DNA from: Acidobacteriota bacterium
GTDB taxonomy: Bacteria > Acidobacteriota > Terriglobia > Acidiferrales > UBA7541
Direction: 5' to 3'
Length of the DNA: 64,000 nucleotides
Assembly (NCBI GenBank): GCA_021818865.1
Contig: JAKASX010000001.1
Coordinates: forward strand, 62,001 to 126,000
A program made the translations under genes and the position numbers. The notes beneath the pieces are model-generated. The model made no database searches and had not been told where the DNA came from. It worked only from the letters and a program-made list of their open reading frames with translations. This document shows, one piece after another, positions 5,027 through 19,856 of the stretch. Numbering within the stretch: position 1 is the stretch's first letter; the number at the start of each line of letters is the position of its first letter.

Positions 5027-5380
5027 TTGACTGGGCGGCGAGTGACTCGCCCGCTCCGCCAATACGGTTATGAAGTCACCCGCCAAACCGGCGGCCACCT
5101 CCGACTCACCAGCAAAGCGCAAGGTGCTCAGCGCCACGTCACCATCCCCGCCCACAACCCGCTCAAAATCGGTACGCTGAGTGCGGGCCTCGCCGAAGTC
5201 GCCTCCTCTCTTGTACACGAACACCTGCTTTCCGGGCGCTGGGACCTCCTCTCGGAAGCCCAAGCCACCCGCTGGGTGGTGTCCAGCGCTGCCAAACTGC
5301 TTTCCATGGCCGATTCCGGAGCATCCCGATCGCCCTTCCGGACACCCCGATCGGTGATCGGCTTGGCCTCGGAACGGTGA
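5027..5380 (+). pseudogene. Remnant of a HicA-like mRNA interferase toxin
   Basis: Residues about 10-60 match the HicA double-stranded RNA-binding fold: LRQYGYEVTRQTGGHLRLTS, then HVTIPAHNPLKIGTL, with the catalytic-type His in GGHLRL. The usual N-terminus RLPxD is present but in the preceding frame (LRLPLD, just before 5027), implying a frameshift, and the frame begins with TTG. After about residue 65 the sequence stops resembling HicA and reads into the 23-bp repeat array. HicA proteins are about 60-80 residues, so the 117-residue frame is not natural. Most likely a broken toxin interrupted at its 3' end by a transposon end. Confidence 0.5.
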
Positions 5381-5616: not shown

Positions 5617-6153
5617 TCAGCGCCGCTGCGCCGTCCTCCCAGGTGGGAATGTTGTGACAACCAGCCCCTCAGCCACCGTAGTCGTTTCCCGACGGCCCGG
5701 GTGCGCCACCACGACCGTGTTCATGTAAATCCTTGATCCACTTGCGAAGGACACGCCGATGAGCAGATCGTCAGGGTCCGCCCCTGCCTGCCAAAGATCG
5801 GCCTCGATGAGTTGGTCGGCTCCTGTCGTCTCCGCCGCATCGCGGTAACCCAACCATTTGATCGCCCTTCCGGGACGAAAAGAAAACTGAACCCGGCCGC
5901 TCTCCCCCTGGCTTTCGGAGCTCCCACGACTGGCTCTGCACAGGGGGAACGTGGACTTGTACAGCGTCCTGCCGTCCAGTTTCACCTCGAGACTCATTGC
6001 CGGTCCTCCGCAGGTCGCAAACCAAAACCACACGGGGCCGCTCTGCGCCTGTGTCCCGGAAGGGAAGCAAGCAGCGAGCAAAATAGGCAAGGTGGTGAGC
6101 AAAAGCCACTCCCTCCGGTTCGAGCGCCGGACTGCGCCTTCACGGACTCTCAT
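5617..6153 (-). CDS. Predicted lipoprotein of unknown function, downstream of RHS cassette A
   Basis: Unrecognised 178-residue exported protein. The ATG at 6153 follows GGGAGGTGCAGCA, a good ribosome binding site, and gives a classic lipoprotein signal: Arg-rich n-region (RRSNRREW), hydrophobic core and lipobox LAAC with Cys near residue 26. The mature part is rich in beta-strand-like stretches (VWFWFATCGGP, LEVKLDGRTLYKS, RVQFSFRPGRAIKWLGY) and has a pair of cysteines. It follows RHS cassette A by about 140 bases on the same strand, the position of a toxin-linked immunity or accessory gene, but nothing in the sequence proves that role. It shows no similarity to the two paralogous exported proteins next to the other RHS fragments. 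Confidence 0.6.
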   Translation of the reverse strand: MRVREGAVRRSNRREWLLLTTLPILLAACFPSGTQAQSGPVWFWFATCGGPAMSLEVKLDGRTLYKSTFPLCRASRGSSESQGESGRVQFSFRPGRAIKWLGYRDAAETTGADQLIEADLWQAGADPDDLLIGVSFASGSRIYMNTVVVAHPGRRETTTVAEGLVVTTFPPGRTAQRR

Positions 6154-6295
6154 TGCTGCACCTCCCGGGCGTCTTCCAGATACCCCCAAAGTCGCGGGAC
6201 AGTAGGATAGGCGAGGGTCCCGGTGAGCGGGGCGGGCGAGAACCCGCTGCATCTAGATGCATCGCTACTCCCTGGAATGCCCCAAGCGAACCGCA

Positions 6296-7660
6296 TCATC
6301 CAACCGTTGGACCTGTCACCGGATCTGTAATAAACGGCGGTGCCGCAGGGCATGGTGACCCCGCTGGAACATTGATTATCGCCGGAACCCTACCGGGCTC
6401 GGGCCCCGTGGGGAGCTCTATGATCACTTGACCGGGATTTATGAACTCCAAGTAATAGCGGATGTTATTGAAACCCATGGGCGGAGGCCCCCCGATGACG
6501 TCCGTGGCACCTTGGAAGGAAACCCCCATGCCGGGGAAGTACCCGCTGATTTGGAGAGCATAGGGTGCCAGCCCCGCACCGCTGCCCACGCCGAACTCCG
6601 AGGGCACCACCGCCGCCGAGCCCGCTTGTACCTTCGCTCCAGGGATTCCGCCCTGAAAACCTACTTTCGCTGGGTTACCTTGGAGTACGCGTGCCGACAC
6701 GTCACACATTTTCGTCTGTCCCGGCGCTTGCGGTGCCGTTTGGTCCCCGCCGATCCCGAGGGCCAGCGGATAAGCCAGACCGGGCCACCAAAAGCCGGCC
6801 CCGCCCTCGATGGACTGTCCGTTGATGGCGTCAAGCATCCCTGCGGCGCAGCCGGCGCTGTCCCAGCATTCGATGACAGAGTAAACAGAGTCGGGCGGTG
6901 CCAGCAACCCCAGCGCACCGCAGGGAACGTCGCCACCATCCACGTAGCAGTTGCCACCGCCCCAATAATAATCGTTCCCGCCACCGCCTCCGCCCCAAGT
7001 TCCTCCGCCTTCGGTTGGCCCGTCGCCGCAGCTAGGTAGAGAATTGTTTCCGCCGCCCGCAACGTCGGCCCGACCGGCGACAAGGCAGACCGCGACGAGA
7101 CCGAGAGGATCGTTGAGCGTGGTGGGGTTGTTCAGAACGTAGGAATACCCGTTCATGGATTGCGGATCGCCAGCCGAGCCGCCGAGTGGATCGGGACTCA
7201 TGAAGCGGCCCAGACGCGGGTTGTAGTAACGGGCATAGGCGTAGTAGTTTCCTGTTTCCGAATCGGATTCGTAGCCGGTGAATTTGTACGTCGGCGAACA
7301 AGACGTGTTGTAGTCGTTTTCCCGCCCGTAGGGGTAATAATCGGCGCTGAAGCACACGTTCCCGCTGAAATCGGTGACCGCTCGCGTTGAGCCAATCGCG
7401 TCCACGAAATAATAGTAGACGTTGCCGGAGGAGTCCTTCCACGCGATGCGGCGACCGGCGAAGAAAATGTAATCGCGCTCCATTCCACCGCTCGTGTTTG
7501 TCTCTTCGATCACCTGGCCAGTATACGCGCGCCAGAAGAGCGTGCCGCTGGATTTTTCGACGCGCGGTCCGTCGCCGTCGTACATGTAATTCACGCCGTT
7601 GGCGCCGGTGATTTCGTTCGCGCCGTTGAACGTGTAGCTGTACAGCGCGTCGCCCGTCAT
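6296..7660 (-). CDS. RHS-core fragment A with unique C-terminal tip
   Basis: A 454-residue frame beginning inside RHS/YD-repeat sequence (YTFNGANEITGANGVNYMYD) and running through the RHS-associated core: RDYIFFAGRRIAW, GSTRAVTD, YYPYGRE, FTGYESDSETGNYYAYARYYNPRLGRF. It ends the core with NDPLGL, the DPxGL border after which polymorphic-toxin tips diverge. The unique tip (~270 residues) has a Gly-rich linker, several cysteines and long hydrophobic/Pro-Gly stretches; I recognise no catalytic domain. Homology to the other cores begins near 7705, right after an in-frame TAG, and there is no convincing ribosome binding site. It therefore looks like a 5'-truncated orphan cassette rather than a complete RHS gene. 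Confidence 0.7.
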   Translation of the reverse strand: MTGDALYSYTFNGANEITGANGVNYMYDGDGPRVEKSSGTLFWRAYTGQVIEETNTSGGMERDYIFFAGRRIAWKDSSGNVYYYFVDAIGSTRAVTDFSGNVCFSADYYPYGRENDYNTSCSPTYKFTGYESDSETGNYYAYARYYNPRLGRFMSPDPLGGSAGDPQSMNGYSYVLNNPTTLNDPLGLVAVCLVAGRADVAGGGNNSLPSCGDGPTEGGGTWGGGGGGNDYYWGGGNCYVDGGDVPCGALGLLAPPDSVYSVIECWDSAGCAAGMLDAINGQSIEGGAGFWWPGLAYPLALGIGGDQTAPQAPGQTKMCDVSARVLQGNPAKVGFQGGIPGAKVQAGSAAVVPSEFGVGSGAGLAPYALQISGYFPGMGVSFQGATDVIGGPPPMGFNNIRYYLEFINPGQVIIELPTGPEPGRVPAIINVPAGSPCPAAPPFITDPVTGPTVG

Positions 7661-7700
7661 GTCGCCATCAGCATCGTAGCTGGACCCGTTGCTCGAAATG
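7120..7700 (-). repeat. RHS-core DNA repeat, copy 1
   Basis: About 580 bases nearly identical to copies at 9395-10020 and (partly) 11240-11520. For example GATCACCTGGCCAGTATACG occurs in all three, at about 7509, 9779 and 11285. The copies diverge abruptly on both sides, consistent with duplication of the core as a recombination platform for tips. Confidence 0.8.
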
Positions 7701-7747
7701 AGGCTGCTTGCCTAGGCGGAGGCCGCAGGCTCAATGCTGGGGCGGCG

Positions 7748-8716
7748 CTAGAAGGCCGGCTCCGGCAGGCCCAGGTACGGGACGGTCACGACGAGGGCAT
7801 ATCTCTGCTCCCAGATCCAGTGCCACAGGTTGCCTGGGTCTGGGGTCAGTGGCTTGCCGGCAATCGCGTCCTCCGCCTTAGTGACCTCTCGCGTGAGGAC
7901 CATCGTCGTTAGGCTGGCCGAGATCCTGTTGCCCGCAGGGCCCACAGTGACATCTCTTGAGGCGGCCTTCACGATTCCGAAGGGTCCGGCGCCAGGTGAG
8001 ACCCACACGTCGCCGCCGTGGTGCCGGAAGCTCCAGTGCTCGCAATGAAAAGTTCCCGCCGGCGTGGTCACTACGGCTGGGCCGAGGTCGTCCGCCCTCG
8101 GCATCTCCAAGTACTGCACGTTTGCCATCCTGAGTCCGGAGAAATAGCCTCTCCCGCCCACCGAGCCAACCCCCCACCAGTTGTCTGGGTCGCTCCATGG
8201 TCCGTTGTACCAGACCCCCGTCGTCTTTCCACGTGGGGTGTGGATGTACCCTGAGGCGGCCTGGAGGTCGCCCTGCGCCCAGCTCCAGAGCCACTCCTGC
8301 GGGAGGGCCATCGGCGGATGGCCCGGAACCAGAGCTACTCCTCTCGAAAACGCCGCCCTCCCCGTGTCTACTGTGAACAGTACCTTGTTGACCAGCGATT
8401 CCTTCTTGCCGGGAAGATGCCCGGACGCCTCCAGCCAATACCACTCCCTTCCCGCGATGATGCGGGCCCCTACGATGGCCAACCTAAACTCGCAATCTGT
8501 GAGCCAGTGCTTAGGGGGGGTCTTTGTCTTTACGCTGTACTCGGCCCCGAACCCGACGGAGAGTTCCCACGCATGCCAGAAGGGCGGGGCATTGCGACGT
8601 ACGGTCCCCTGGGCACGCGCTGCCAGGCTAGCTGCCGCCAGCGTCAAAACCACCGCGACGGTGCACCAAGCCACGCTCACGACACCGCGCTGCAACGTGC
8701 GCCTCAGAAGCTGCAT
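7748..8716 (-). CDS. Exported protein, paralogue 2 of the RHS-linked family
   Basis: About 322 residues with an N-terminal signal peptide (hydrophobic core VVSVAW through LAAASLAARAQG). The body is clearly homologous to the protein at 10105-11016. Shared blocks include AWELSVGFGAEYSV, YWLEASGHLPG, VNKVLFTVDTG, PMALPQEWL, GPFGIVKA and a closing DAIAGKPLTPDPGNLWHWIW. A TPAGTFHCEHW block is present here. I recall acidobacterial periplasmic proteins with a similar CEHW pattern but cannot name a family. The start at 8716 is uncertain (8746 and 8731 also in frame); all of them overlap the end of RHS cassette B, so the two genes are physically coupled. Role unknown; immunity or cargo processing is inference from position. 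Confidence 0.6.
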   Translation of the reverse strand: MQLLRRTLQRGVVSVAWCTVAVVLTLAAASLAARAQGTVRRNAPPFWHAWELSVGFGAEYSVKTKTPPKHWLTDCEFRLAIVGARIIAGREWYWLEASGHLPGKKESLVNKVLFTVDTGRAAFSRGVALVPGHPPMALPQEWLWSWAQGDLQAASGYIHTPRGKTTGVWYNGPWSDPDNWWGVGSVGGRGYFSGLRMANVQYLEMPRADDLGPAVVTTPAGTFHCEHWSFRHHGGDVWVSPGAGPFGIVKAASRDVTVGPAGNRISASLTTMVLTREVTKAEDAIAGKPLTPDPGNLWHWIWEQRYALVVTVPYLGLPEPAF

Positions 8717-9987
8717 GGGTCCATGTCCCATGGCGTCGGCAGGCAAGAATTGCCTCCGCCGCCACTGCTGCCGAAGAACATCTGCATGTCGAATTGGGGA
8801 AACCCGGCATCGAGCCAGTCTCCGAGCAGGTTGCCTCCGATCGGAATGTCGTCCTCGGCCGGGAAGCCGTACGCGTGCGTGTAAAATGACAGCCCCTCCG
8901 CTACATTACTCCCGCTTGCCGAGGGGGCACCGAAGATAGCGTCGAAGCTGGGCTGATAGTAGTTCAGATAGAACCATGATTCTTGTTCCGCGGGCGTCAA
9001 GTTTTTCGGAGGTACGGGCGGGGAGGAAAGGTACGTCCCGCACCCTGACGGGCCGGGGTGTGTCCAGGCCTGTTGTGTTAGAGGGCCTGGCCCTGGCGCA
9101 GAGAAGGCGTCGCACACCGCGCCGAAGGCGCTGCCGTACGGGCTGGTTGGCGTGGGCGCGTGGCTGCGCAGGTACGCAAGGAAGGCGCGCGCTTCGATCT
9201 CAGCGGCCTCGGCTATTTGGAGCATCGCCCCAAGGGGATGCGCCGGCACGGGGGTTGGTGCGGCACCCGTCCACCCCCCGGCGATGGAAACCGTCGGGCC
9301 TCCAGCGATCAAGGCAGCGACGAATACTTCTGTAGAATTGCCTGCGGGAGCGCCAAAGGCCGCTGGCATTTCCCTTGGGCCGACGAAGCTCGTCGGGTTG
9401 TTTGCAATATAGGAGTAGCCGTTCAAGGATTGTGGGCTTCCGACGTCCGCGAGCGTGAAATCTGGACTCATGAAGCGGCCGAGACGCGGGTTGTAATACC
9501 TTGCGTACGCATAATAATTACCCGTTTCGGAGTCGAATTCGTAGCCGGTGAATTTGTACGTGGGCGAGCAGGACGTGTTGTAGTCGTTTTCCTGCCCATA
9601 CGGATAATAATCCGCGCTGGAACACACGTTCCCGCTTGAATCGGTGACTGCTCGCGTCGAGCCGATGGCATCCGCGAAATAATAGTAGACGTTGCCGGAG
9701 GAGTCCTTCCACGCGATTCTTCGTCCGGCGAAGAAAATGTAATCGCGTTCCATTCCGCCGCTCGTGTTAGTCTCTTCGATCACCTGGCCAGTATACGCGC
9801 GCCAGTAGAGCGTGCCGCTGGATTTTTCGACGCGCAGGCCGTCGCCGTCGTACGTGTAATTCACGCCGTTGGCTCTCGTGATTTCGCCCGCACCGTTGTA
9901 CGTGTAACTGTACAGTGCGTCGCCCGTAATGTCGCCATCAGCATCGTAGCTGGGCCCGCTGCTGGAAATCTGGTTGTTGCCATTCAC
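8704..9987 (-). CDS. RHS-core fragment B with unique C-terminal tip
   Basis: A 427-residue frame starting with GTG inside RHS sequence (NGNNQISSSGPSYDADGD). It carries the same core as copy A (RDYIFFAGRRIAWKDSSGN, YYPYGQENDYNTSC, YNPRLGRFMSPD). Homology extends upstream to about 10020 (KCTGPSLSVTV) and stops next to an in-frame TGA. After NGYSYIANNPTSF the expected DPxGL border is replaced by VGPREM, so the usual cleavage/border motif is missing. The ~220-residue tip is Pro/Ala/Gly-rich with a helical stretch (AMLQIAEAAEIEARAFLAYL) and ends DMDPCSF; I recognise no toxin fold. Its stop overlaps the start region of the next exported protein, suggesting the pair moved and is translated together. 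Confidence 0.7.
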   Translation of the reverse strand: MNGNNQISSSGPSYDADGDITGDALYSYTYNGAGEITRANGVNYTYDGDGLRVEKSSGTLYWRAYTGQVIEETNTSGGMERDYIFFAGRRIAWKDSSGNVYYYFADAIGSTRAVTDSSGNVCSSADYYPYGQENDYNTSCSPTYKFTGYEFDSETGNYYAYARYYNPRLGRFMSPDFTLADVGSPQSLNGYSYIANNPTSFVGPREMPAAFGAPAGNSTEVFVAALIAGGPTVSIAGGWTGAAPTPVPAHPLGAMLQIAEAAEIEARAFLAYLRSHAPTPTSPYGSAFGAVCDAFSAPGPGPLTQQAWTHPGPSGCGTYLSSPPVPPKNLTPAEQESWFYLNYYQPSFDAIFGAPSASGSNVAEGLSFYTHAYGFPAEDDIPIGGNLLGDWLDAGFPQFDMQMFFGSSGGGGNSCLPTPWDMDPCSF

Positions 9988-10020
9988 AGTGACGCTGAGA
10001 CTGGGCCCCGTGCATTTGGG
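9395..10020 (-). repeat. RHS-core DNA repeat, copy 2
   Basis: Second copy of the core segment. It covers the same stretch as copy 1 and reaches about 60 residues further upstream (through KCTGPSLSV). It ends abruptly just after the stop of the exported-protein gene at 10105. Confidence 0.8.
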
Positions 10021-10104
10021 ACTCCATCAGGCAATGCGCCGGCTCCCGAAAGATACGGTTCGCGCTCACGCAAATCCCGACTAAGACTGGCAACGGCCTG
10101 CAGC

Positions 10105-11016
10105 TTATCCTGGCGCACCTGGCTCTGGAAGTCCGAGCTGCGGAAGGCAGAGCGCCGGCCTTCCCCTCGCCCATTGGTCCCAGATCCAGCCCCAGAGCAC
10201 ATCTGGGCGTGCCGAAAGGGGCTTGCTGACTATCGCGTCCTTAGCGCCGCTCAGAACGCGCGTCAGCAGCATGGCGGAGGGGAGTGCATACGTGCCGGCC
10301 TCTCCAAAGCTCGCCTTGACGATACCAAATGGGCCTGCCTCTCTCGCGATGTACACCCGCACCGAGCCGCCGGCGAGAAGCCAAGGTGCCGCGCTCGCAT
10401 GCATGCTCCATAGCTGAGCCCTGTATCTTCCTGCTGGCACCCCTATCCACTCCTCCCTCACGGGCACCGCCTTGGGGATCTCCGAAAGCCCTGTCGCTGG
10501 CCCGAAAAACCCGGGCACATACTGGGAGGTGACCGTGCCGGGTGAGGGAGCGGTACCGAAGCCAGCGGTTGTGTAGGGCTCTATGAACCCGGTCGCTGCG
10601 GCTAATTCGCCCCGAGTCCATTGGGGCAGCCAACTCCTCGGCAACTCCATGGCCGGGCGTCCTGGTAGCTGCGTAATCGCCCTTACGAACACCACGCTGT
10701 CCCCCTCCCTGTAAAACAGCGCTTTGTTTACGAATGGCTCAGGGGAGCCTGGCAGGCGCGACGAGATCTCAAGCCAATACATTTTGCCGCCCCGCCGAGG
10801 CTCCTCACCGACCACGGCCAAGTCAATCACACACGTCGCCGCATACGAACAACTCACTCGGTACTCCGCGCCAGAGCCAACCCTCAGGTCCCAGGCCTTA
10901 GAAAATGCCGGCGCTCTCCAGCGGACGCCCTTCTCTTTGACACAGCCAGCCGCGCACGCCAGCGCGAGCCCCAAGGACCACGACTTCGCGTGCCTGGCCA
11001 ATCGCTGGAAAGCCAT
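10105..11016 (-). CDS. Predicted lipoprotein, paralogue 1 of the RHS-linked family
   Basis: About 303 residues from the ATG at 11016. That start gives a compact lipoprotein signal (FQRLARHAKSW, hydrophobic LGLALA, then AAGC at about residue 26); the frame is open to 11193 but the extra sequence is low-complexity. The body is paralogous to the protein at 7748-8716: AWDLRVGSGAEYRV, YWLEISSRLPGS, VNKALFYREG, PAMELPRSWL, GPFGIVKASFG and KPLSARPDVLWGWIWDQ. The CEHW-type motif of the paralogue is replaced by RAQLWSM. It sits directly after the broken end of RHS fragment C and before RHS fragment B, so RHS and this family alternate. Function unknown. Confidence 0.6.
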   Translation of the reverse strand: MAFQRLARHAKSWSLGLALACAAGCVKEKGVRWRAPAFSKAWDLRVGSGAEYRVSCSYAATCVIDLAVVGEEPRRGGKMYWLEISSRLPGSPEPFVNKALFYREGDSVVFVRAITQLPGRPAMELPRSWLPQWTRGELAAATGFIEPYTTAGFGTAPSPGTVTSQYVPGFFGPATGLSEIPKAVPVREEWIGVPAGRYRAQLWSMHASAAPWLLAGGSVRVYIAREAGPFGIVKASFGEAGTYALPSAMLLTRVLSGAKDAIVSKPLSARPDVLWGWIWDQWARGRPALCLPQLGLPEPGAPG

Positions 11017-11239
11017 GCCTTTGGCCCCATGCGGGCTTTCTCGCCCTGCACCAGCCGAGGCGGAGGAGCCACAGACAGGATGCGTATTTGCGCGGGGGCT
11101 TGGCGGCTGCTCGTGACCCTCACAGGCTGCACACATCGTTCCATCCGCCGATGCCGCATTCGCTGTTCCCCGAAAATCCCCCTCCCTCTCCAAAAAACGT
11201 ATTCACGTCGAAGGAGGGGAGCCGGGGTCGGCTGCGAAG

Positions 11240-11520
11240 TTAATGTAGTCGCGTTGCATTCCACCGCTCGCGTTTGTCTCTTCGATCACCTGGCCAGTAT
11301 ACGCGCGCCAGAAGAGCGTGCCGCTGGATTTTTCGACGCGCAGGCCGTTGCCGTCATACGTATAATTCACGCCGTTGGCGCTGGTGATTTCGTTCGCGCC
11401 GTTGAACGTGTAGCTGTACAGCGCGTCGGCTGTCATGTCGCCATCAGCATCGTAACTGAACCCGCTGCTGGAAATCTGGTTGTTGCCATTCACCGAAACG
11501 CTCAGGCTCGGGCCGGAGCA
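11240..11520 (-). repeat. RHS-core DNA repeat, copy 3 (partial)
   Basis: Matches copies 1 and 2 from the NGNNQISSSG region to RDYI, then diverges at about 11240, where the exported-protein gene begins. The second half of the core present in the other copies is absent. Confidence 0.8.
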
Positions 11521-12117
11521 CTTGAAGACGCTCATCGAAAGCAGGTTGCCGAGAGCATCATCGGCGAGGTTGCCTCCAGTGCCGAAATTCAAGCCCCAGC
11601 AGTCCTGACCGGAGCCCGCTTGTGTTTGGGCTTGTAAGATGCGGCCGAGCGGATCGTAGCTGAAGGATTCGTTTCGGCCGCTGTCGTTGCCGTTGCCGAT
11701 TGACGTGACGCTGCCGTTGTTCGCAAAGCCGTAGCTCAGATTGAGCGCGCTGCCGGCGGACGAGGAAGCGGAGATCGAGGTGGGCTCCAAGTCGGGATTG
11801 TAGCTCCAGCTTTCGGTGATTCCGCCGAAGCCGCCGCTGACGTAGCCGTGGAGGTCCTGATCGAGCGCGCCCTGCGGCCAGTAAGTGGCGTTCTGCGCGT
11901 AGTTCGTGCCGCTCGCACCCACGGCGGTCAGTGGACGCTGGGCGCCGCTGTACGTGTAATTGACCGTTCGACCGTCGGGATACGTGAGCGAGACGAGCGA
12001 GCCGTCAAGGTTGTAGGAATGCAGGATGATCTTCGTGACGCCGGCAATTGTCTTCTCTTCGGCCACGATGCGCCCTGCGGGACCGTAGCTCCAGGCGGTT
12101 TGGCCCGATTGAACCCA

Positions 12118-12140
12118 ATTGTCCGTAATGTCCGTAAAAA
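12118..12140 (+). repeat. TGTCCGTAA-type double motif, right copy
   Basis: TTGTCCGTAA followed at once by TGTCCGTAAAAA, in the same orientation as the copy at 4766-4789. It lies precisely where RHS fragment C loses its upstream frame, 140 bases before the end of the Nramp-like gene. Confidence 0.5.
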
Positions 12141-12279
12141 ATCGGCTTCAGTTGCAGTCGGAGTTGCCGCGTAAATGGCAGAGCAAGGGAGGTTTGGAAT
12201 GGTTCCTAGGATCGGACCTACAACCTTTCGGTTTTCAGCATTCGGATTGCGAGCCTGGCGGTGCGGCCTTCCCTGCCCT

Positions 12280-16023: not shown

Positions 16024-18633
16024 ATGGCTGAACCAACCACGCCGCTCTTGCGGCAGTATCACGCCATCAAACAGCGCTACCCGCAGGCGCTCCTGCTTTT
16101 CCGGCTGGGCGATTTTTACGAACTCTTCTACGAAGATGCGATTGCCGCTTCGCGCGAGCTGCAGATCACGCTGACCTCGCGCAATCGCGAGGCCGGACAG
16201 GCCGTTCCGATGTGCGGCGTTCCCTACCATGCGGCCGAGACCTACGTGGCGCGCCTGGTTCGCGCGGGCTACAAGGTGGCCATCTGCGAGCAGATGGAAG
16301 AGCCGTCCAAGAAGAAGAAACTGGTGCGCCGCGAGGTGGTTCGCGTCATCACGCCCGGCACGGCGACGGATTTTCCACTGCTCGAGCCACGGGAGAACAA
16401 TTACCTGGCCGCTGTCGCCCGCGATCCCGACGACGGCGTCATCGGCCTGGCCGCCGTGGACGTTTCCACGGGCGATTTCACCGCGACGGAATTTTCCGGC
16501 GGCGACGCCGAATCGCGCCTGGCGGAGGAACTCGGGCTGCTGCGCGTGCGCGAGGTGCTGTTGCCGCGGCCGACGACGCTTTTTTCGCCGGGACACGAAA
16601 GCGAGCGTTCCGGCGCGGTGGAAACCCGCCTGGACGACTGGGTGTTTCGCAGTGATTACGGCGCGCGGCTGCTAGCCGAGCAGTTTGGGGTGGTCACGCT
16701 CGAAGGATTCGGCCTCGAAGGGCATCCGCAAGCGATCGCCGCGGCCGGCGCGCTGATTCACTATTTGCGGGAAACGTCCGGGGTCGGCGGCGGGGGTCTC
16801 GATCATCTGGCCCGCATCCGTTTCTACAACGACCAGGACGCGCTGGTGCTCGACGACGCCACGGTCCGCAACCTTGAACTCGTCTCGCCGCTCCCTGGAG
16901 GCGGCCCGGAAACCACGCTGCTCGCCGCGCTCGATGAGACCGCGACGGGCATGGGCGCCCGGCTTTTGCGCGCCAGCTTGCTGCGCCCTCCCGTTGAGCG
17001 CGCGGAAATCGAGGAGCGGCTCGACGCCGTGGCCGAGCTTGTTCCATCCACCGTTTTGCGCGAAGAGCTGCGGACCGACCTTGGCGGGGTGATGGACCTG
17101 GAGCGGCTGGCGAGCCGCGTGACGTTGGGCGTGGCCACGCCGCGCGACCTGGTGGCGCTCAAGCGCTCGCTCGCCCGGCTGCCGCTGCTGCGCGGATTTC
17201 TGGCGCGCTGCACCAGCGCACGCCTCGCAACGCTACGCGAGCAGATCGACGAACTCGCCGACGTCCGCGAACACATCGAACGCGCCATTGCCGACGATCC
17301 CCCCGCGCAGCCCACCGAGCCTGGCGTCATTCGCCGCGGATTCGAGGCCGAACTCGATGAACTGCGCGATCTGAGCCAGAACGCCAAGCAGACCATCGCA
17401 CAGATGGAAGAACGCGAGCGCAAGCGCACCGGGATCGGGTCGCTCAAAATCCGCTTCAATCAGGTGTTCGGCTATTCCATCGAAATCTCGAAGCCGAACC
17501 TGCATTTGGCGCCCGCCGACTACGAGCGCAAACAGACGCTCGTTGGCGCCGAGCGATTCATTTCCCCCGAATTGAAGCAGTACGAGCGCAAAGTGCTCGA
17601 AGCCGACGGCCGGATTCTCGAAATCGAGCGCCGGCTGTTCACCGAGCTTCGCGGCTGGATCGCGACGCACGTGGGCCGGCTGCGCCAAACGGCCGCGGCG
17701 ATCGCACGGCTCGACGTTCTGGTGACGCTCGCGCGCATCGCCGTGGCGCGGAATTACGTTCGGCCGGAATTTAACGATGGCGATGAGCTGTGCATCGTCG
17801 GCGGGCGCCATCCGGTGGTCGAGCGGCTGCTCGAGCGGCGCGGCGAACGATTCGTTCCGAACGACCTTTTTTTGAATTCCACTTCGCACGCGATTCTGGT
17901 GATCACCGGACCGAACATGGGAGGCAAATCCACTTATCTGCGCCAGGCCGCGCTCATCGTGTTGATGGCGCAGATGGGGTCGTTCGTTCCAGCCGGCGAA
18001 GCGCGGCTGCCGATCACCGACCGCATTTTTACCAGGATTGGCGCGTCCGACAGCCTAGCGCGCGGACGGTCCACGTTTTTGACGGAGATGAGCGAAGTGG
18101 CGGCGATTCTGAACGGCGCGACCGAATCGAGCCTGGTGTTGCTGGATGAGGTGGGCCGCGGCACGGCAACCTACGACGGCCTCGCGATCGCGTGGGCGGT
18201 GGTGGAATCGCTCGATTCGCATCCGCGTCCGCGCACGCTTTTCGCCACGCACTATCACGAACTCACGGAACTGGCCGAACGGCTGGAAGGCGTGAAAAAC
18301 ATGCACGTCGCGGTGCGCGAAGCGGGCCAGGAAGTGATTTTTCTGCATCGCGTGGAGCCCGGGCCCGCCGACCGCAGCTACGGCATCGAGGTCGCGCGCC
18401 TAGCGGGGCTTCCACCGGCGGTGGTGGATCGCGCGCGGGAAATTCTTCGCCGTCACGAGCAGAGCGAGCATCAACTTACCGAAAGTCTTTCGCCCGGCGC
18501 GGCCGAGCAGACGGCGATTTTCACTCCGCTCGACGGTAAGATCGTCGAAACACTGCGCTCGCTCGATCCCGACGGGCTGCGCCCGATCGAGGCGCTGGCG
18601 CTGCTGGCCGAACTGAAGAAGCAGGTTTCCTGA
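16024..18633 (+). CDS. mutS: DNA mismatch repair protein MutS
   Basis: Mismatch-recognising ATPase, 869 residues, full length. The N-terminus MAEPTTPLLRQYHAIKQRYP leads into the mismatch-binding domain, including the GDFYELFYEDA block with the Phe-x-Glu that probes mismatches. Core and clamp domains follow. The ATPase has Walker A GPNMGGKST (about residues 630-638), FLTEMSE, Walker B LVLLDEVGRGT and the His switch ATHYHEL. The C-terminus ends RPIEALALLAELKK, normal for MutS1. Its TGA overlaps the anmK ATG by one base. No mutL lies in the window. Confidence 0.97.
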   Translation: MAEPTTPLLRQYHAIKQRYPQALLLFRLGDFYELFYEDAIAASRELQITLTSRNREAGQAVPMCGVPYHAAETYVARLVRAGYKVAICEQMEEPSKKKKLVRREVVRVITPGTATDFPLLEPRENNYLAAVARDPDDGVIGLAAVDVSTGDFTATEFSGGDAESRLAEELGLLRVREVLLPRPTTLFSPGHESERSGAVETRLDDWVFRSDYGARLLAEQFGVVTLEGFGLEGHPQAIAAAGALIHYLRETSGVGGGGLDHLARIRFYNDQDALVLDDATVRNLELVSPLPGGGPETTLLAALDETATGMGARLLRASLLRPPVERAEIEERLDAVAELVPSTVLREELRTDLGGVMDLERLASRVTLGVATPRDLVALKRSLARLPLLRGFLARCTSARLATLREQIDELADVREHIERAIADDPPAQPTEPGVIRRGFEAELDELRDLSQNAKQTIAQMEERERKRTGIGSLKIRFNQVFGYSIEISKPNLHLAPADYERKQTLVGAERFISPELKQYERKVLEADGRILEIERRLFTELRGWIATHVGRLRQTAAAIARLDVLVTLARIAVARNYVRPEFNDGDELCIVGGRHPVVERLLERRGERFVPNDLFLNSTSHAILVITGPNMGGKSTYLRQAALIVLMAQMGSFVPAGEARLPITDRIFTRIGASDSLARGRSTFLTEMSEVAAILNGATESSLVLLDEVGRGTATYDGLAIAWAVVESLDSHPRPRTLFATHYHELTELAERLEGVKNMHVAVREAGQEVIFLHRVEPGPADRSYGIEVARLAGLPPAVVDRAREILRRHEQSEHQLTESLSPGAAEQTAIFTPLDGKIVETLRSLDPDGLRPIEALALLAELKKQVS

Positions 18634-19856
18634 TGCTTGTTCTGGGGATGATGTCCGGCACTTCGGCCGACGGAATAGACGTCGCACTGGCGCGAATCGA
18701 ATCCGCGCCGCCGCACCTGCGCGCGAAACTCGAAAATTTCTTCGCCGTTCCCTACCCCGCGCCTGTGCGCCGCGCGATTTTGCGCGTGGCCGAGGGCCAG
18801 CCGACGACAACCGCCGAAATCAGCGAGATGAACTTTCTGGTGGGGGAACTCTTCGCGCGGGCCGCGCTCGACGCCTGCCGCAAATTTCGCGTGCCGCCGG
18901 CACGAATCGCGCTCATCGGTTCGCACGGCCAGACGATTTACCATCAGGGACACCCTTCTCGATTTCTGGGCCATTTGGTCGCTTCGACGCTGCAGATTGG
19001 CGAACCGTCCGCGATCGCGGCGCGCACCGGCGTGCCCGTGGTCGCCGATTTTCGCCCGGCCGACATGGCCGCGGGCGGACAAGGCGCGCCGCTGGTTCCT
19101 TTCGTGGATTATCTGCTCTATCGTGACGCGCGGCGCGGGCGTGTGGCGCTGAATATCGGCGGCATCGCCAATGTGACGGTGATTCCGCGCGGCGCGCGAG
19201 CGAGCGACGTTTTCGCGTTCGATACCGGGCCGGGAAACATGGTTTGCGACGCGCTGGCGTGGAAATTCAGCGGCGGCCGCGCGGCGTTCGATCGCGGTGC
19301 GCGCATGGCGACGCGAGGGAAACCGCTTCGCCGCGTGCTCGATCGGCTGCTGGCGGATCCCTACTTTCTTGAAAACCCTCCGAAAAGCGCGGGGCGCGAG
19401 CAATATGGAAACGCGTACGTCGAGCGGCTGCTCGCGCTGGCGCACGGCGCGCGAACGGAAGACGTTCTCGCCACGGCCACGCTGCTGACGCCGCTTTCCA
19501 TTCTCGACGCGCTGCATCGCCACGTTTTCCCGCGGGCCCGCGTGGACGAAGTGATCGTTTCCGGCGGCGGCGCGCATAATCCGCTTATGCTCGCCCAACT
19601 CGCCGCCGGGCTCGGACGCATTCCGCTGCGCAGAGCCGAGGAACTGGGCGTCTCCGAAGACGCCAAGGAAGCTTTCGCCTTTGCCATCCTCGCTTACGAA
19701 ACCTGGCACCGAAGGCCGGCGAATCTTCCTTCCGCGACCGGCGCTCGCCTGCCGGCGATTTTAGGAAAAGTGAGCTACCCTCTGGTCGCATGGCGAGCGG
19801 ACCGCAGGGGGTGGTCCCGGGGCGCGCAATCCCTCTCCAGCCGATCGGGAAAATGA
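18633..19856 (+). CDS. anmK: Anhydro-N-acetylmuramic acid kinase
   Basis: Cytosolic kinase that opens and phosphorylates 1,6-anhydro-MurNAc from peptidoglycan recycling to MurNAc-6-phosphate. The start VLGMMSGTSADGIDVAL is the ATP-binding signature, with the catalytic-type Asp in VVADFRPADMAAGGQGAPL and phosphate contacts in NIGGIANVT and FDTGPGNMV. The conserved body ends with AFAFAILAYETWHRRP; the last ~45 residues are a Ser/Arg-rich tail unlike the family and may reflect a late stop. At 407 residues it is longer than the usual ~370. Overlaps mutS by one base, so cotranslation is likely. Confidence 0.93.
   Translation: MLVLGMMSGTSADGIDVALARIESAPPHLRAKLENFFAVPYPAPVRRAILRVAEGQPTTTAEISEMNFLVGELFARAALDACRKFRVPPARIALIGSHGQTIYHQGHPSRFLGHLVASTLQIGEPSAIAARTGVPVVADFRPADMAAGGQGAPLVPFVDYLLYRDARRGRVALNIGGIANVTVIPRGARASDVFAFDTGPGNMVCDALAWKFSGGRAAFDRGARMATRGKPLRRVLDRLLADPYFLENPPKSAGREQYGNAYVERLLALAHGARTEDVLATATLLTPLSILDALHRHVFPRARVDEVIVSGGGAHNPLMLAQLAAGLGRIPLRRAEELGVSEDAKEAFAFAILAYETWHRRPANLPSATGARLPAILGKVSYPLVAWRADRRGWSRGAQSLSSRSGK

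What the first reader, a model, noticed from the sequence alone, without database searches (positions are those of the whole stretch)
5617..12147. Three RHS-core copies alternate with predicted exported proteins
On the minus strand the order is RHS fragment C, exported paralogue 1, RHS core+tip B, exported paralogue 2, RHS core+tip A, lipoprotein. Cores are nearly identical in DNA but the tips differ completely and the upstream truncation increases from C to B to A. This is the layout of displaced (orphan) toxin-tip cassettes that can recombine through the core. The partner genes are exported proteins rather than small cytosolic immunity proteins, which is unusual for RHS and could be a distinct acidobacterial arrangement.
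Basis: partly seen in the sequence, partly recalled or inferred. Interest (0 to 1): 0.78.

Follow-up and report, generated by a model that had tools for sequence, protein, structure and literature searches.

The report
Stranded RHS tips with exported partners
An uncultured Acidobacteriota genome keeps a decaying row of three cut-off RHS toxin-gene ends, each once followed by its own predicted protector gene; the protectors look like proteins sent out of the cytoplasm, which hints that these toxins act in the cell envelope, though no activity has been shown.

Summary
The array is real. Three N-terminally truncated RHS fragments lie at 12147-5617 (minus strand), with cores 86-91% identical in DNA (not 'nearly identical') that diverge at the tip. 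The repeating unit is [core][tip][partner]. Fragment C is not tip-less: an internal deletion left the last ~35 residues of a tip-B-type tip directly before exported gene 1. So exported genes 1 and 2 both follow tip-B-type tips, as in a second cassette on contig C147. Tip A pairs elsewhere with a different exported protein (own contig C46 and two other genera); in this window that partner is lost and a lipoprotein gene follows. Geothrix limicola has an intact Sec-signal RHS gene ending in tip A, with an exported gene overlapping its stop codon. These are displaced (orphan) RHS tip/partner modules, as known for Rhs and CDI. Less usual is that partners are exported: about half of 23 surveyed RHS-downstream genes, against 22% of background; cytosolic-type partners also occur. 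No T6SS sheath gene was found, so Sec export of an RHS head is likely; no head was found here. Toxin and immunity activity is inferred. The LolA-like fold of the exported family is well supported; a cell-wall fold for tip A is only a weak lead.

The parts
12148..12233 (-). non-coding 5' flank of fragment C, also present before an RHS fragment on contig C1
   Evidence: blastn: window 12233-11942 matches L043:3547-3840 at 81.5%
11206..12147 (-). RHS fragment C: open frame with no start at the RHS boundary, two RHS repeats, core cut by a deletion at about 11234
   Evidence: Pfam RHS_repeat E 3.4e-10; stop-to-stop frame; 83% aa identity to C147 RHS, dN/dS 0.23
11119..11239 (-). remnant end of a tip-B-type tip, in another frame, directly before exported gene 1
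   Evidence: profile A2 E 1.1e-11; DNA 83.6% to C147 tip end; translation
10108..11016 (-). exported gene 1 (Exp1), candidate exported immunity; signal sequence with conserved AAGCVKEKG; longer start possible up to the ATG that overlaps the tip remnant
   Evidence: 63% aa identity to C147 partner, dN/dS 0.19; family alignment A7
9394..10026 (-). RHS core B, N-terminally truncated
   Evidence: TIGR03696 E 3.2e-17
8704..9393 (-). tip B (229 aa plus stop), lacks DPxGL, begins TSFVGPREMP
   Evidence: homologue on C147, E 6.5e-13; no Pfam, NCBIfam or PDB match
7751..8716 (-). exported gene 2 (Exp2), start overlaps the end of tip B by 13 nt; candidate exported immunity, LolA-like half-barrel
   Evidence: AF2 pLDDT 75 and Foldseek E 3.5e-5 to 4fvs and 6.0e-5 to 3fzx; the profile ranks the same two PDB entries, E 0.28 and 0.4
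7124..7711 (-). RHS core A, N-terminally truncated
   Evidence: TIGR03696 E 2.3e-21; 88% aa identity to core B, dN/dS 0.17
6296..7123 (-). tip A (275 aa plus stop, after DPLGL); conserved domain 6299-6742 with an invariant Cys pair
   Evidence: homologues on C46 and in G029, G125 and Geothrix limicola
6150..6299 (-). trace of the lost tip A partner: ATGATGCG overlap shared with C46, then an unrelated 49-codon frame whose TGA overlaps the lipoprotein start
   Evidence: blastn homology to C46 ends at 6292; junction sequences; frames
5617..6153 (-). lipoprotein (lipobox LLAAC); candidate immunity of a lost fourth tip or an unrelated accessory gene
   Evidence: sequence; no homologue in 40 other genomes or in plasmids

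Best explanation
This is a head-less, partly decayed array of orphan RHS tip/partner modules. Each module is the 3' end of a former RHS gene (core plus a variable tip) and the gene translated directly after it. I infer that the tips are antagonistic effector domains that a full-length, Sec-exported RHS protein would present on the surface or deliver, and that the exported partners are their immunity proteins, placed in the periplasm or membrane because the tip acts there or because the RHS protein passes through the periplasm of its own producer. Modules spread by recombination through conserved core or linker sequence and then lose heads, tips or partners. Shown: truncation, tip/partner pairing, gene overlaps, purifying selection on average, an intact Sec-signal version elsewhere, and tip exchange behind shared linkers. 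Inferred: toxicity, immunity, target compartment, and whether this copy is expressed.
For: Three RHS copies without heads. Tip-B-type tip followed by an Exp-family gene at C147, at window B/Exp2, and as a deletion remnant before Exp1. Tip A followed by partner A on C46 and in G029 and G125. Intact RHS with signal peptide and tip A plus an overlapping exported gene in Geothrix limicola. Stop/start overlaps at C46, C147, Geothrix, G029 and tip B/Exp2. Different tip and different exported partner behind a C46-like linker, 82% identical over 45 aa, in G003. dN/dS 0.17-0.30 for cores, Exp genes and tip A. RHS-downstream genes predicted exported in 11 of 23 cases against 64 of 285 background pairs, one-sided Fisher p=0.009; 9 of 21 outside this genome, p=0.037. 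No VipB/TssC in the genome. LolA-like fold of the Exp family. Orphan modules and toxin-immunity order described in PMC3150448 and PMC3482391; a teneurin-like C-terminal domain toxic only when given a signal peptide in PMC13018210.
Against: No tip matches a known toxin family. No full-length head was found in this genome, and RHS contigs end at repeats, so its absence is uncertain. At least eight Exp-family copies lie without a recognisable intact tip, and weak relatives are ordinary secreted proteins in many genomes. The Geothrix partner is not significantly similar to partner A. Tip B divergence is weakly constrained (dN/dS 0.55). The signal-peptide calls are my own heuristic, not SignalP, and the survey is small. 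Export evidence for RHS heads rests on two other genomes.
Confidence: 0.7

Rival explanations
1. The partners are not immunity proteins but surface or periplasmic companions (carriers, anchors or subunits) of a non-toxic RHS surface protein.
For: The Exp family has the LolA-like half-barrel fold typical of carriers and lipid binders, occurs alone at many loci and is weakly related to a common secreted family; no toxin domain was recognised.
Against: Each tip type has its own partner type, partners change together with tips, and the gene order and overlaps match toxin-immunity modules. A shared companion should be constant rather than tip-specific.
Confidence: 0.17
2. Non-functional debris: a former RHS locus eroding by deletion, with no present role for tips or partners. 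This can be true together with the main explanation of origin.
For: C is internally deleted and frame-shifted, tip A has lost its partner, there is no head, no start at the RHS boundaries and no promoter above chance.
Against: A, B, Exp1, Exp2 and the lipoprotein keep long intact frames; average selection is purifying, although this may reflect time spent in functional genes. Orphan immunity genes can be expressed without their toxins (PMC3150448).
Confidence: 0.35
3. Assembly artefact of collapsed RHS repeats.
For: Draft genome of 165 contigs; other RHS loci lie at or near contig ends.
Against: Copies differ at 9-14% of sites; the array is inside a 147-kb contig; the same layout recurs on C147 and in G125.
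Confidence: 0.04

Closest known systems
Orphan rhs-CT/rhsI and cdiA-CT/cdiI modules (Poole et al. 2011, PMC3150448)
   Same: Start-less 3' fragments with variable upstream length, each with a polymorphic tip and a downstream partner gene; modules fused to full-length genes in other species
   Different: No head gene is linked here; partners are predicted exported rather than small cytosolic proteins; two of three modules are damaged; activity untested
Polymorphic toxin systems with toxin-immunity cassettes, RHS type exported by Sec (Zhang et al. 2012, PMC3482391)
   Same: RHS repeats, variable C-terminus, toxin-then-immunity order, Sec-signal full-length relative
   Different: That survey describes Imm65 as the only lipoprotein immunity in its collection, plus secreted or TM partners of an L,D-peptidase toxin; here several unrelated exported partner families recur
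Bacterial teneurin-like proteins (PMC13018210)
   Same: Sec-exported YD-shell with a polymorphic C-terminal toxin and a downstream immunity gene; one C-terminal domain toxic only when sent to the periplasm
   Different: Only a sub-threshold TEN_YD-shell match for core B; no full head to compare
LolA/YmcC-like exported half-barrels (PDB 4fvs, 3fzx; DUF3108-like)
   Same: Predicted fold and weak profile similarity of the Exp family
   Different: Exp proteins carry a long insertion, follow RHS tips and are expanded in this genome

Membership tests
Orphan Rhs tip/immunity module | RHS fragment lacking head and native start | tested here: met
   A, B and C open only inside the RHS region
Orphan Rhs tip/immunity module | Sharp change from conserved core to unrelated tip | tested here: met
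   A/B DNA homology ends at 7122/9392, at NNP|T
Orphan Rhs tip/immunity module | Tip-specific partner gene directly downstream | tested here: met
   Tip B-Exp at window and C147; tip A-partner A on C46 and in G029, G125; partner lost behind window tip A
Orphan Rhs tip/immunity module | Same tip fused to a full-length RHS gene elsewhere | tested here: met
   Tip A in Geothrix limicola, 1749 aa, signal peptide; not found for tip B
Orphan Rhs tip/immunity module | Module downstream of a full-length head (usual, not obligatory) | tested here: not met
   No head at this locus or among the RHS loci found in the genome; contigs break at RHS repeats, so one may be missing from the assembly
Orphan Rhs tip/immunity module | Toxic tip neutralised by partner | not testable with these tools
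   Needs expression experiments
T6SS-delivered Rhs effector | T6SS present in the genome | tested here: not met
   No VipB/TssC match in a 95% complete genome; control found it in E. coli
LolA/YmcC-like exported proteins (Exp1, Exp2) | Half-barrel fold and signal sequence | tested here: met
   Foldseek E 3.5e-5 with the same two PDB entries ranked by sequence profile; low TM, probably because of the long low-confidence insertion; signal sequence judged by eye and heuristic
3D-domain / double-psi barrel cell-wall enzymes (tip A) | Fold match | tested here: inconclusive
   Expansin and aspartate decarboxylase at E 1.6-8; phage 3D proteins at E 0.1-0.65
3D-domain / double-psi barrel cell-wall enzymes (tip A) | Sequence relation to the 3D family | tested here: not met
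   No Pfam match; hhalign to E. coli MltA P=0.49

The most novel reading that the evidence does not exclude
Acidobacteriota use a recurring class of Sec-exported RHS toxins whose tips act in the periplasm or cell wall, each guarded by an exported immunity protein; one immunity family was recruited from LolA-like exported proteins and expanded to about a dozen copies in this genome, and tip A is a double-psi-barrel (3D-like) cell-wall enzyme.
Probability: 0.25. Interest if true: 0.65.

Novelty: new variant of a known kind. Interest (0 to 1): 0.45.

Why it matters
Known RHS immunity proteins are mostly cytosolic because most known tips attack nucleic acids or other cytoplasmic targets. Several tip families paired with exported partners would point to a set of envelope-acting RHS toxins in a phylum where interbacterial conflict is hardly studied, and would supply specific tip/partner pairs, one in a named strain (Geothrix limicola Red804), for direct tests.

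Tried and rejected
Known-family naming of tips and partners (Pfam, NCBIfam, PDB sequence): no match except RHS and sub-threshold DUF3108-like in distant Exp relatives. T6SS delivery: no sheath gene. Tip A as a 3D/MltA-type domain: fold hits only at E 0.1-8, no sequence support; PF06725 absent from 121 genomes of the class. Geothrix partner as a member of partner A: not significant. Tip A in viral contigs: none. Lipoprotein homologues in relatives and plasmids: none. Tip B outside this genome: none significant in 399 class genomes. Promoters and terminators: no more than chance. First version of the survey script was too loose and was replaced, from which I removed two duplicates and one false RHS call by hand.

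Full report
Observation. The window is positions 62001-126000 of a 147,646-bp contig (C165) of a draft Acidobacteriota genome (3.97 Mb, 165 contigs, 95% complete). On the minus strand, 12147 to 5617 reads: RHS fragment C, exported gene Exp1, RHS core+tip B, exported gene Exp2, RHS core+tip A, lipoprotein. RHS core models match A and B strongly (TIGR03696 E 2e-21 and 3e-17) and RHS repeats match C. Core identities are 85.7% (A/B, 593 nt), 88.0% (C/B, 291 nt) and 91.0% (C/A, 255 nt), so 'nearly identical' is too strong. A/B homology stops at NNP|T, just before the tip.

The unit is core-tip-partner. Contig C147 carries a more complete RHS fragment: core, a tip 34-36% identical to tip B, then a protein 63% identical to Exp1. 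That tip ends GNGECGVGGWNDVCSL. In the window, between C and Exp1 and in a different frame, lies FDVNTFFGEGGGFSGNSECGIGGWNDVCSL* (E 1.1e-11). Core homology ends at 11234 and tip-end homology starts at 11239, so C is a third core-tip-partner unit whose middle was deleted. On C59 a similar tip-end remnant (GECGTGGWSDVCFP*) lies upstream of another Exp paralogue; I saw this by eye in the frames and it did not pass the profile search.

Tip A has a different partner. On C46 a tip 60-65% identical to tip A over its conserved domain is followed by a two-domain exported protein, with the stop codon overlapping its ATGATG start. In G029 (another genus; Acidobacteria BP7.bin36) and G125 (another family; YP1.bin34), tip A homologues are again followed by homologues of that partner (E 2e-15 and 2e-23). 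In G125 the pair sits between further truncated RHS fragments, the same layout as here. In the window, homology to C46 continues through the tip A stop into the partner's first codons and then ends; an unrelated 49-codon frame follows whose TGA overlaps the lipoprotein's ATG. The lipoprotein may be the partner of a lost fourth tip; it has no homologue in 40 other genomes searched.

An intact relative exists. Geothrix limicola Red804 (Holophagae) encodes a 1749-aa RHS protein that starts MNRWLKFCLAVCLGLSWTKVQAQ, has RHS repeats and the RHS core, and ends in tip A; a 184-aa exported protein overlaps its stop by ATGA. Its similarity to partner A is not significant (hhalign P=0.023, probability 2%).

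Tips move. In G003, same genus, a core and 45-residue linker like C46's (82%) carries a different tip and a different exported partner. In G029 a non-RHS linker occurs three times at 97-98% DNA identity with three different C-termini, one of them tip A.

How general are exported partners? RHS cores are common in the class (143 of 200 genomes). G225 has a Sec-signal head followed by orphan cores whose next genes look cytosolic. Among 23 RHS fragments with a clear next gene (after removing two duplicates and one false RHS call), 11 next genes were predicted exported, against 64 of 285 background gene pairs (one-sided Fisher p=0.009; outside this genome 9 of 21, p=0.037). The predictor is my own and missed at least one obvious lipoprotein (L095). 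Exported partners are thus frequent but not universal.

What the proteins may be. An AF2 model of Exp2 (pLDDT 75) matches PDB 4fvs and 3fzx, exported proteins of YmcC/LolA-like fold (Foldseek E 3.5e-5 and 6.0e-5); a sequence profile search returns the same two entries as its only hits (E 0.28 and 0.4). The family has about a dozen loci in this genome, many without tips, and weak relatives of DUF3108 type in other genomes. The tip A model (pLDDT 79) gives only non-significant hits, but they include expansin and aspartate decarboxylase, which are double-psi barrels (from my own knowledge), and three phage 3D-domain proteins. Sequence comparison does not support this, so it is a lead only. The tip A domain has two invariant Cys residues near its ends, compatible with an oxidising compartment.

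Delivery. No VipB/TssC gene was found, so T6SS delivery is unlikely. The two intact heads I read, Geothrix and G225, start with Sec-type signals, which fits the Sec route for RHS in Zhang et al. 2012 (PMC3482391). That paper calls Imm65 the only lipoprotein immunity in its collection. A Sec-exported RHS carrying a periplasm-active tip would need protection in the producer's periplasm, which would explain exported partners. This step is inference.

State of the locus. C is broken, tip A has lost its partner, and no head was found. I read the locus as an orphan array in decay that may still provide immunity. Orphan modules with these features were described by Poole et al. 2011 (PMC3150448). The kind is known; the variant is the exported partner families.

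Noticed in passing
window 5027-5377, + strand: HicA-type toxin-antitoxin gene (Pfam HicA_toxin E 1.9e-7) beside the array on the opposite strand; possible HicB-like residues just upstream gave no Pfam match.
   Followed up: partly
L032 (contig C147) about 18560-18640; also C46 (L045) and C48: In-frame insert of the type GACPERSRRDGDALYASRMAL inside RHS cores, looking like a palindromic intragenic repeat.
   Followed up: no
L032:16085-16156: An isolated 72-nt piece of the RHS core, 94% identical to core B, left downstream of the C147 exported gene.
   Followed up: partly
L034, L035, L036, L037, L038, L039, L040, L032:5711-6637: Exp-family expansion in this genome: further copies on other contigs, mostly without a recognisable tip; several share the conserved AAGCVKEKGVRW lipoprotein-like start.
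   Followed up: partly
L062 (G029 contig C12): A non-RHS linker repeated three times at 97-98% DNA identity with three different C-termini, one of them tip A with its exported partner: tip A may ride on a scaffold other than RHS.
   Followed up: partly
L082 (G225 C15): Sec-signal RHS head of 1876 aa followed by a row of orphan cores with cytosolic-looking partners: an ordinary orphan array in the same class.
   Followed up: partly
L041, L042, L044 (contigs C48 and C16): A second, different RHS family in this genome, with copies at contig ends.
   Followed up: partly
window 12148-12233 and L043:3547-3640: The non-coding flank upstream of fragment C is shared with an RHS fragment on contig C1, so the 5' truncation point may predate the duplication.
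   Followed up: partly
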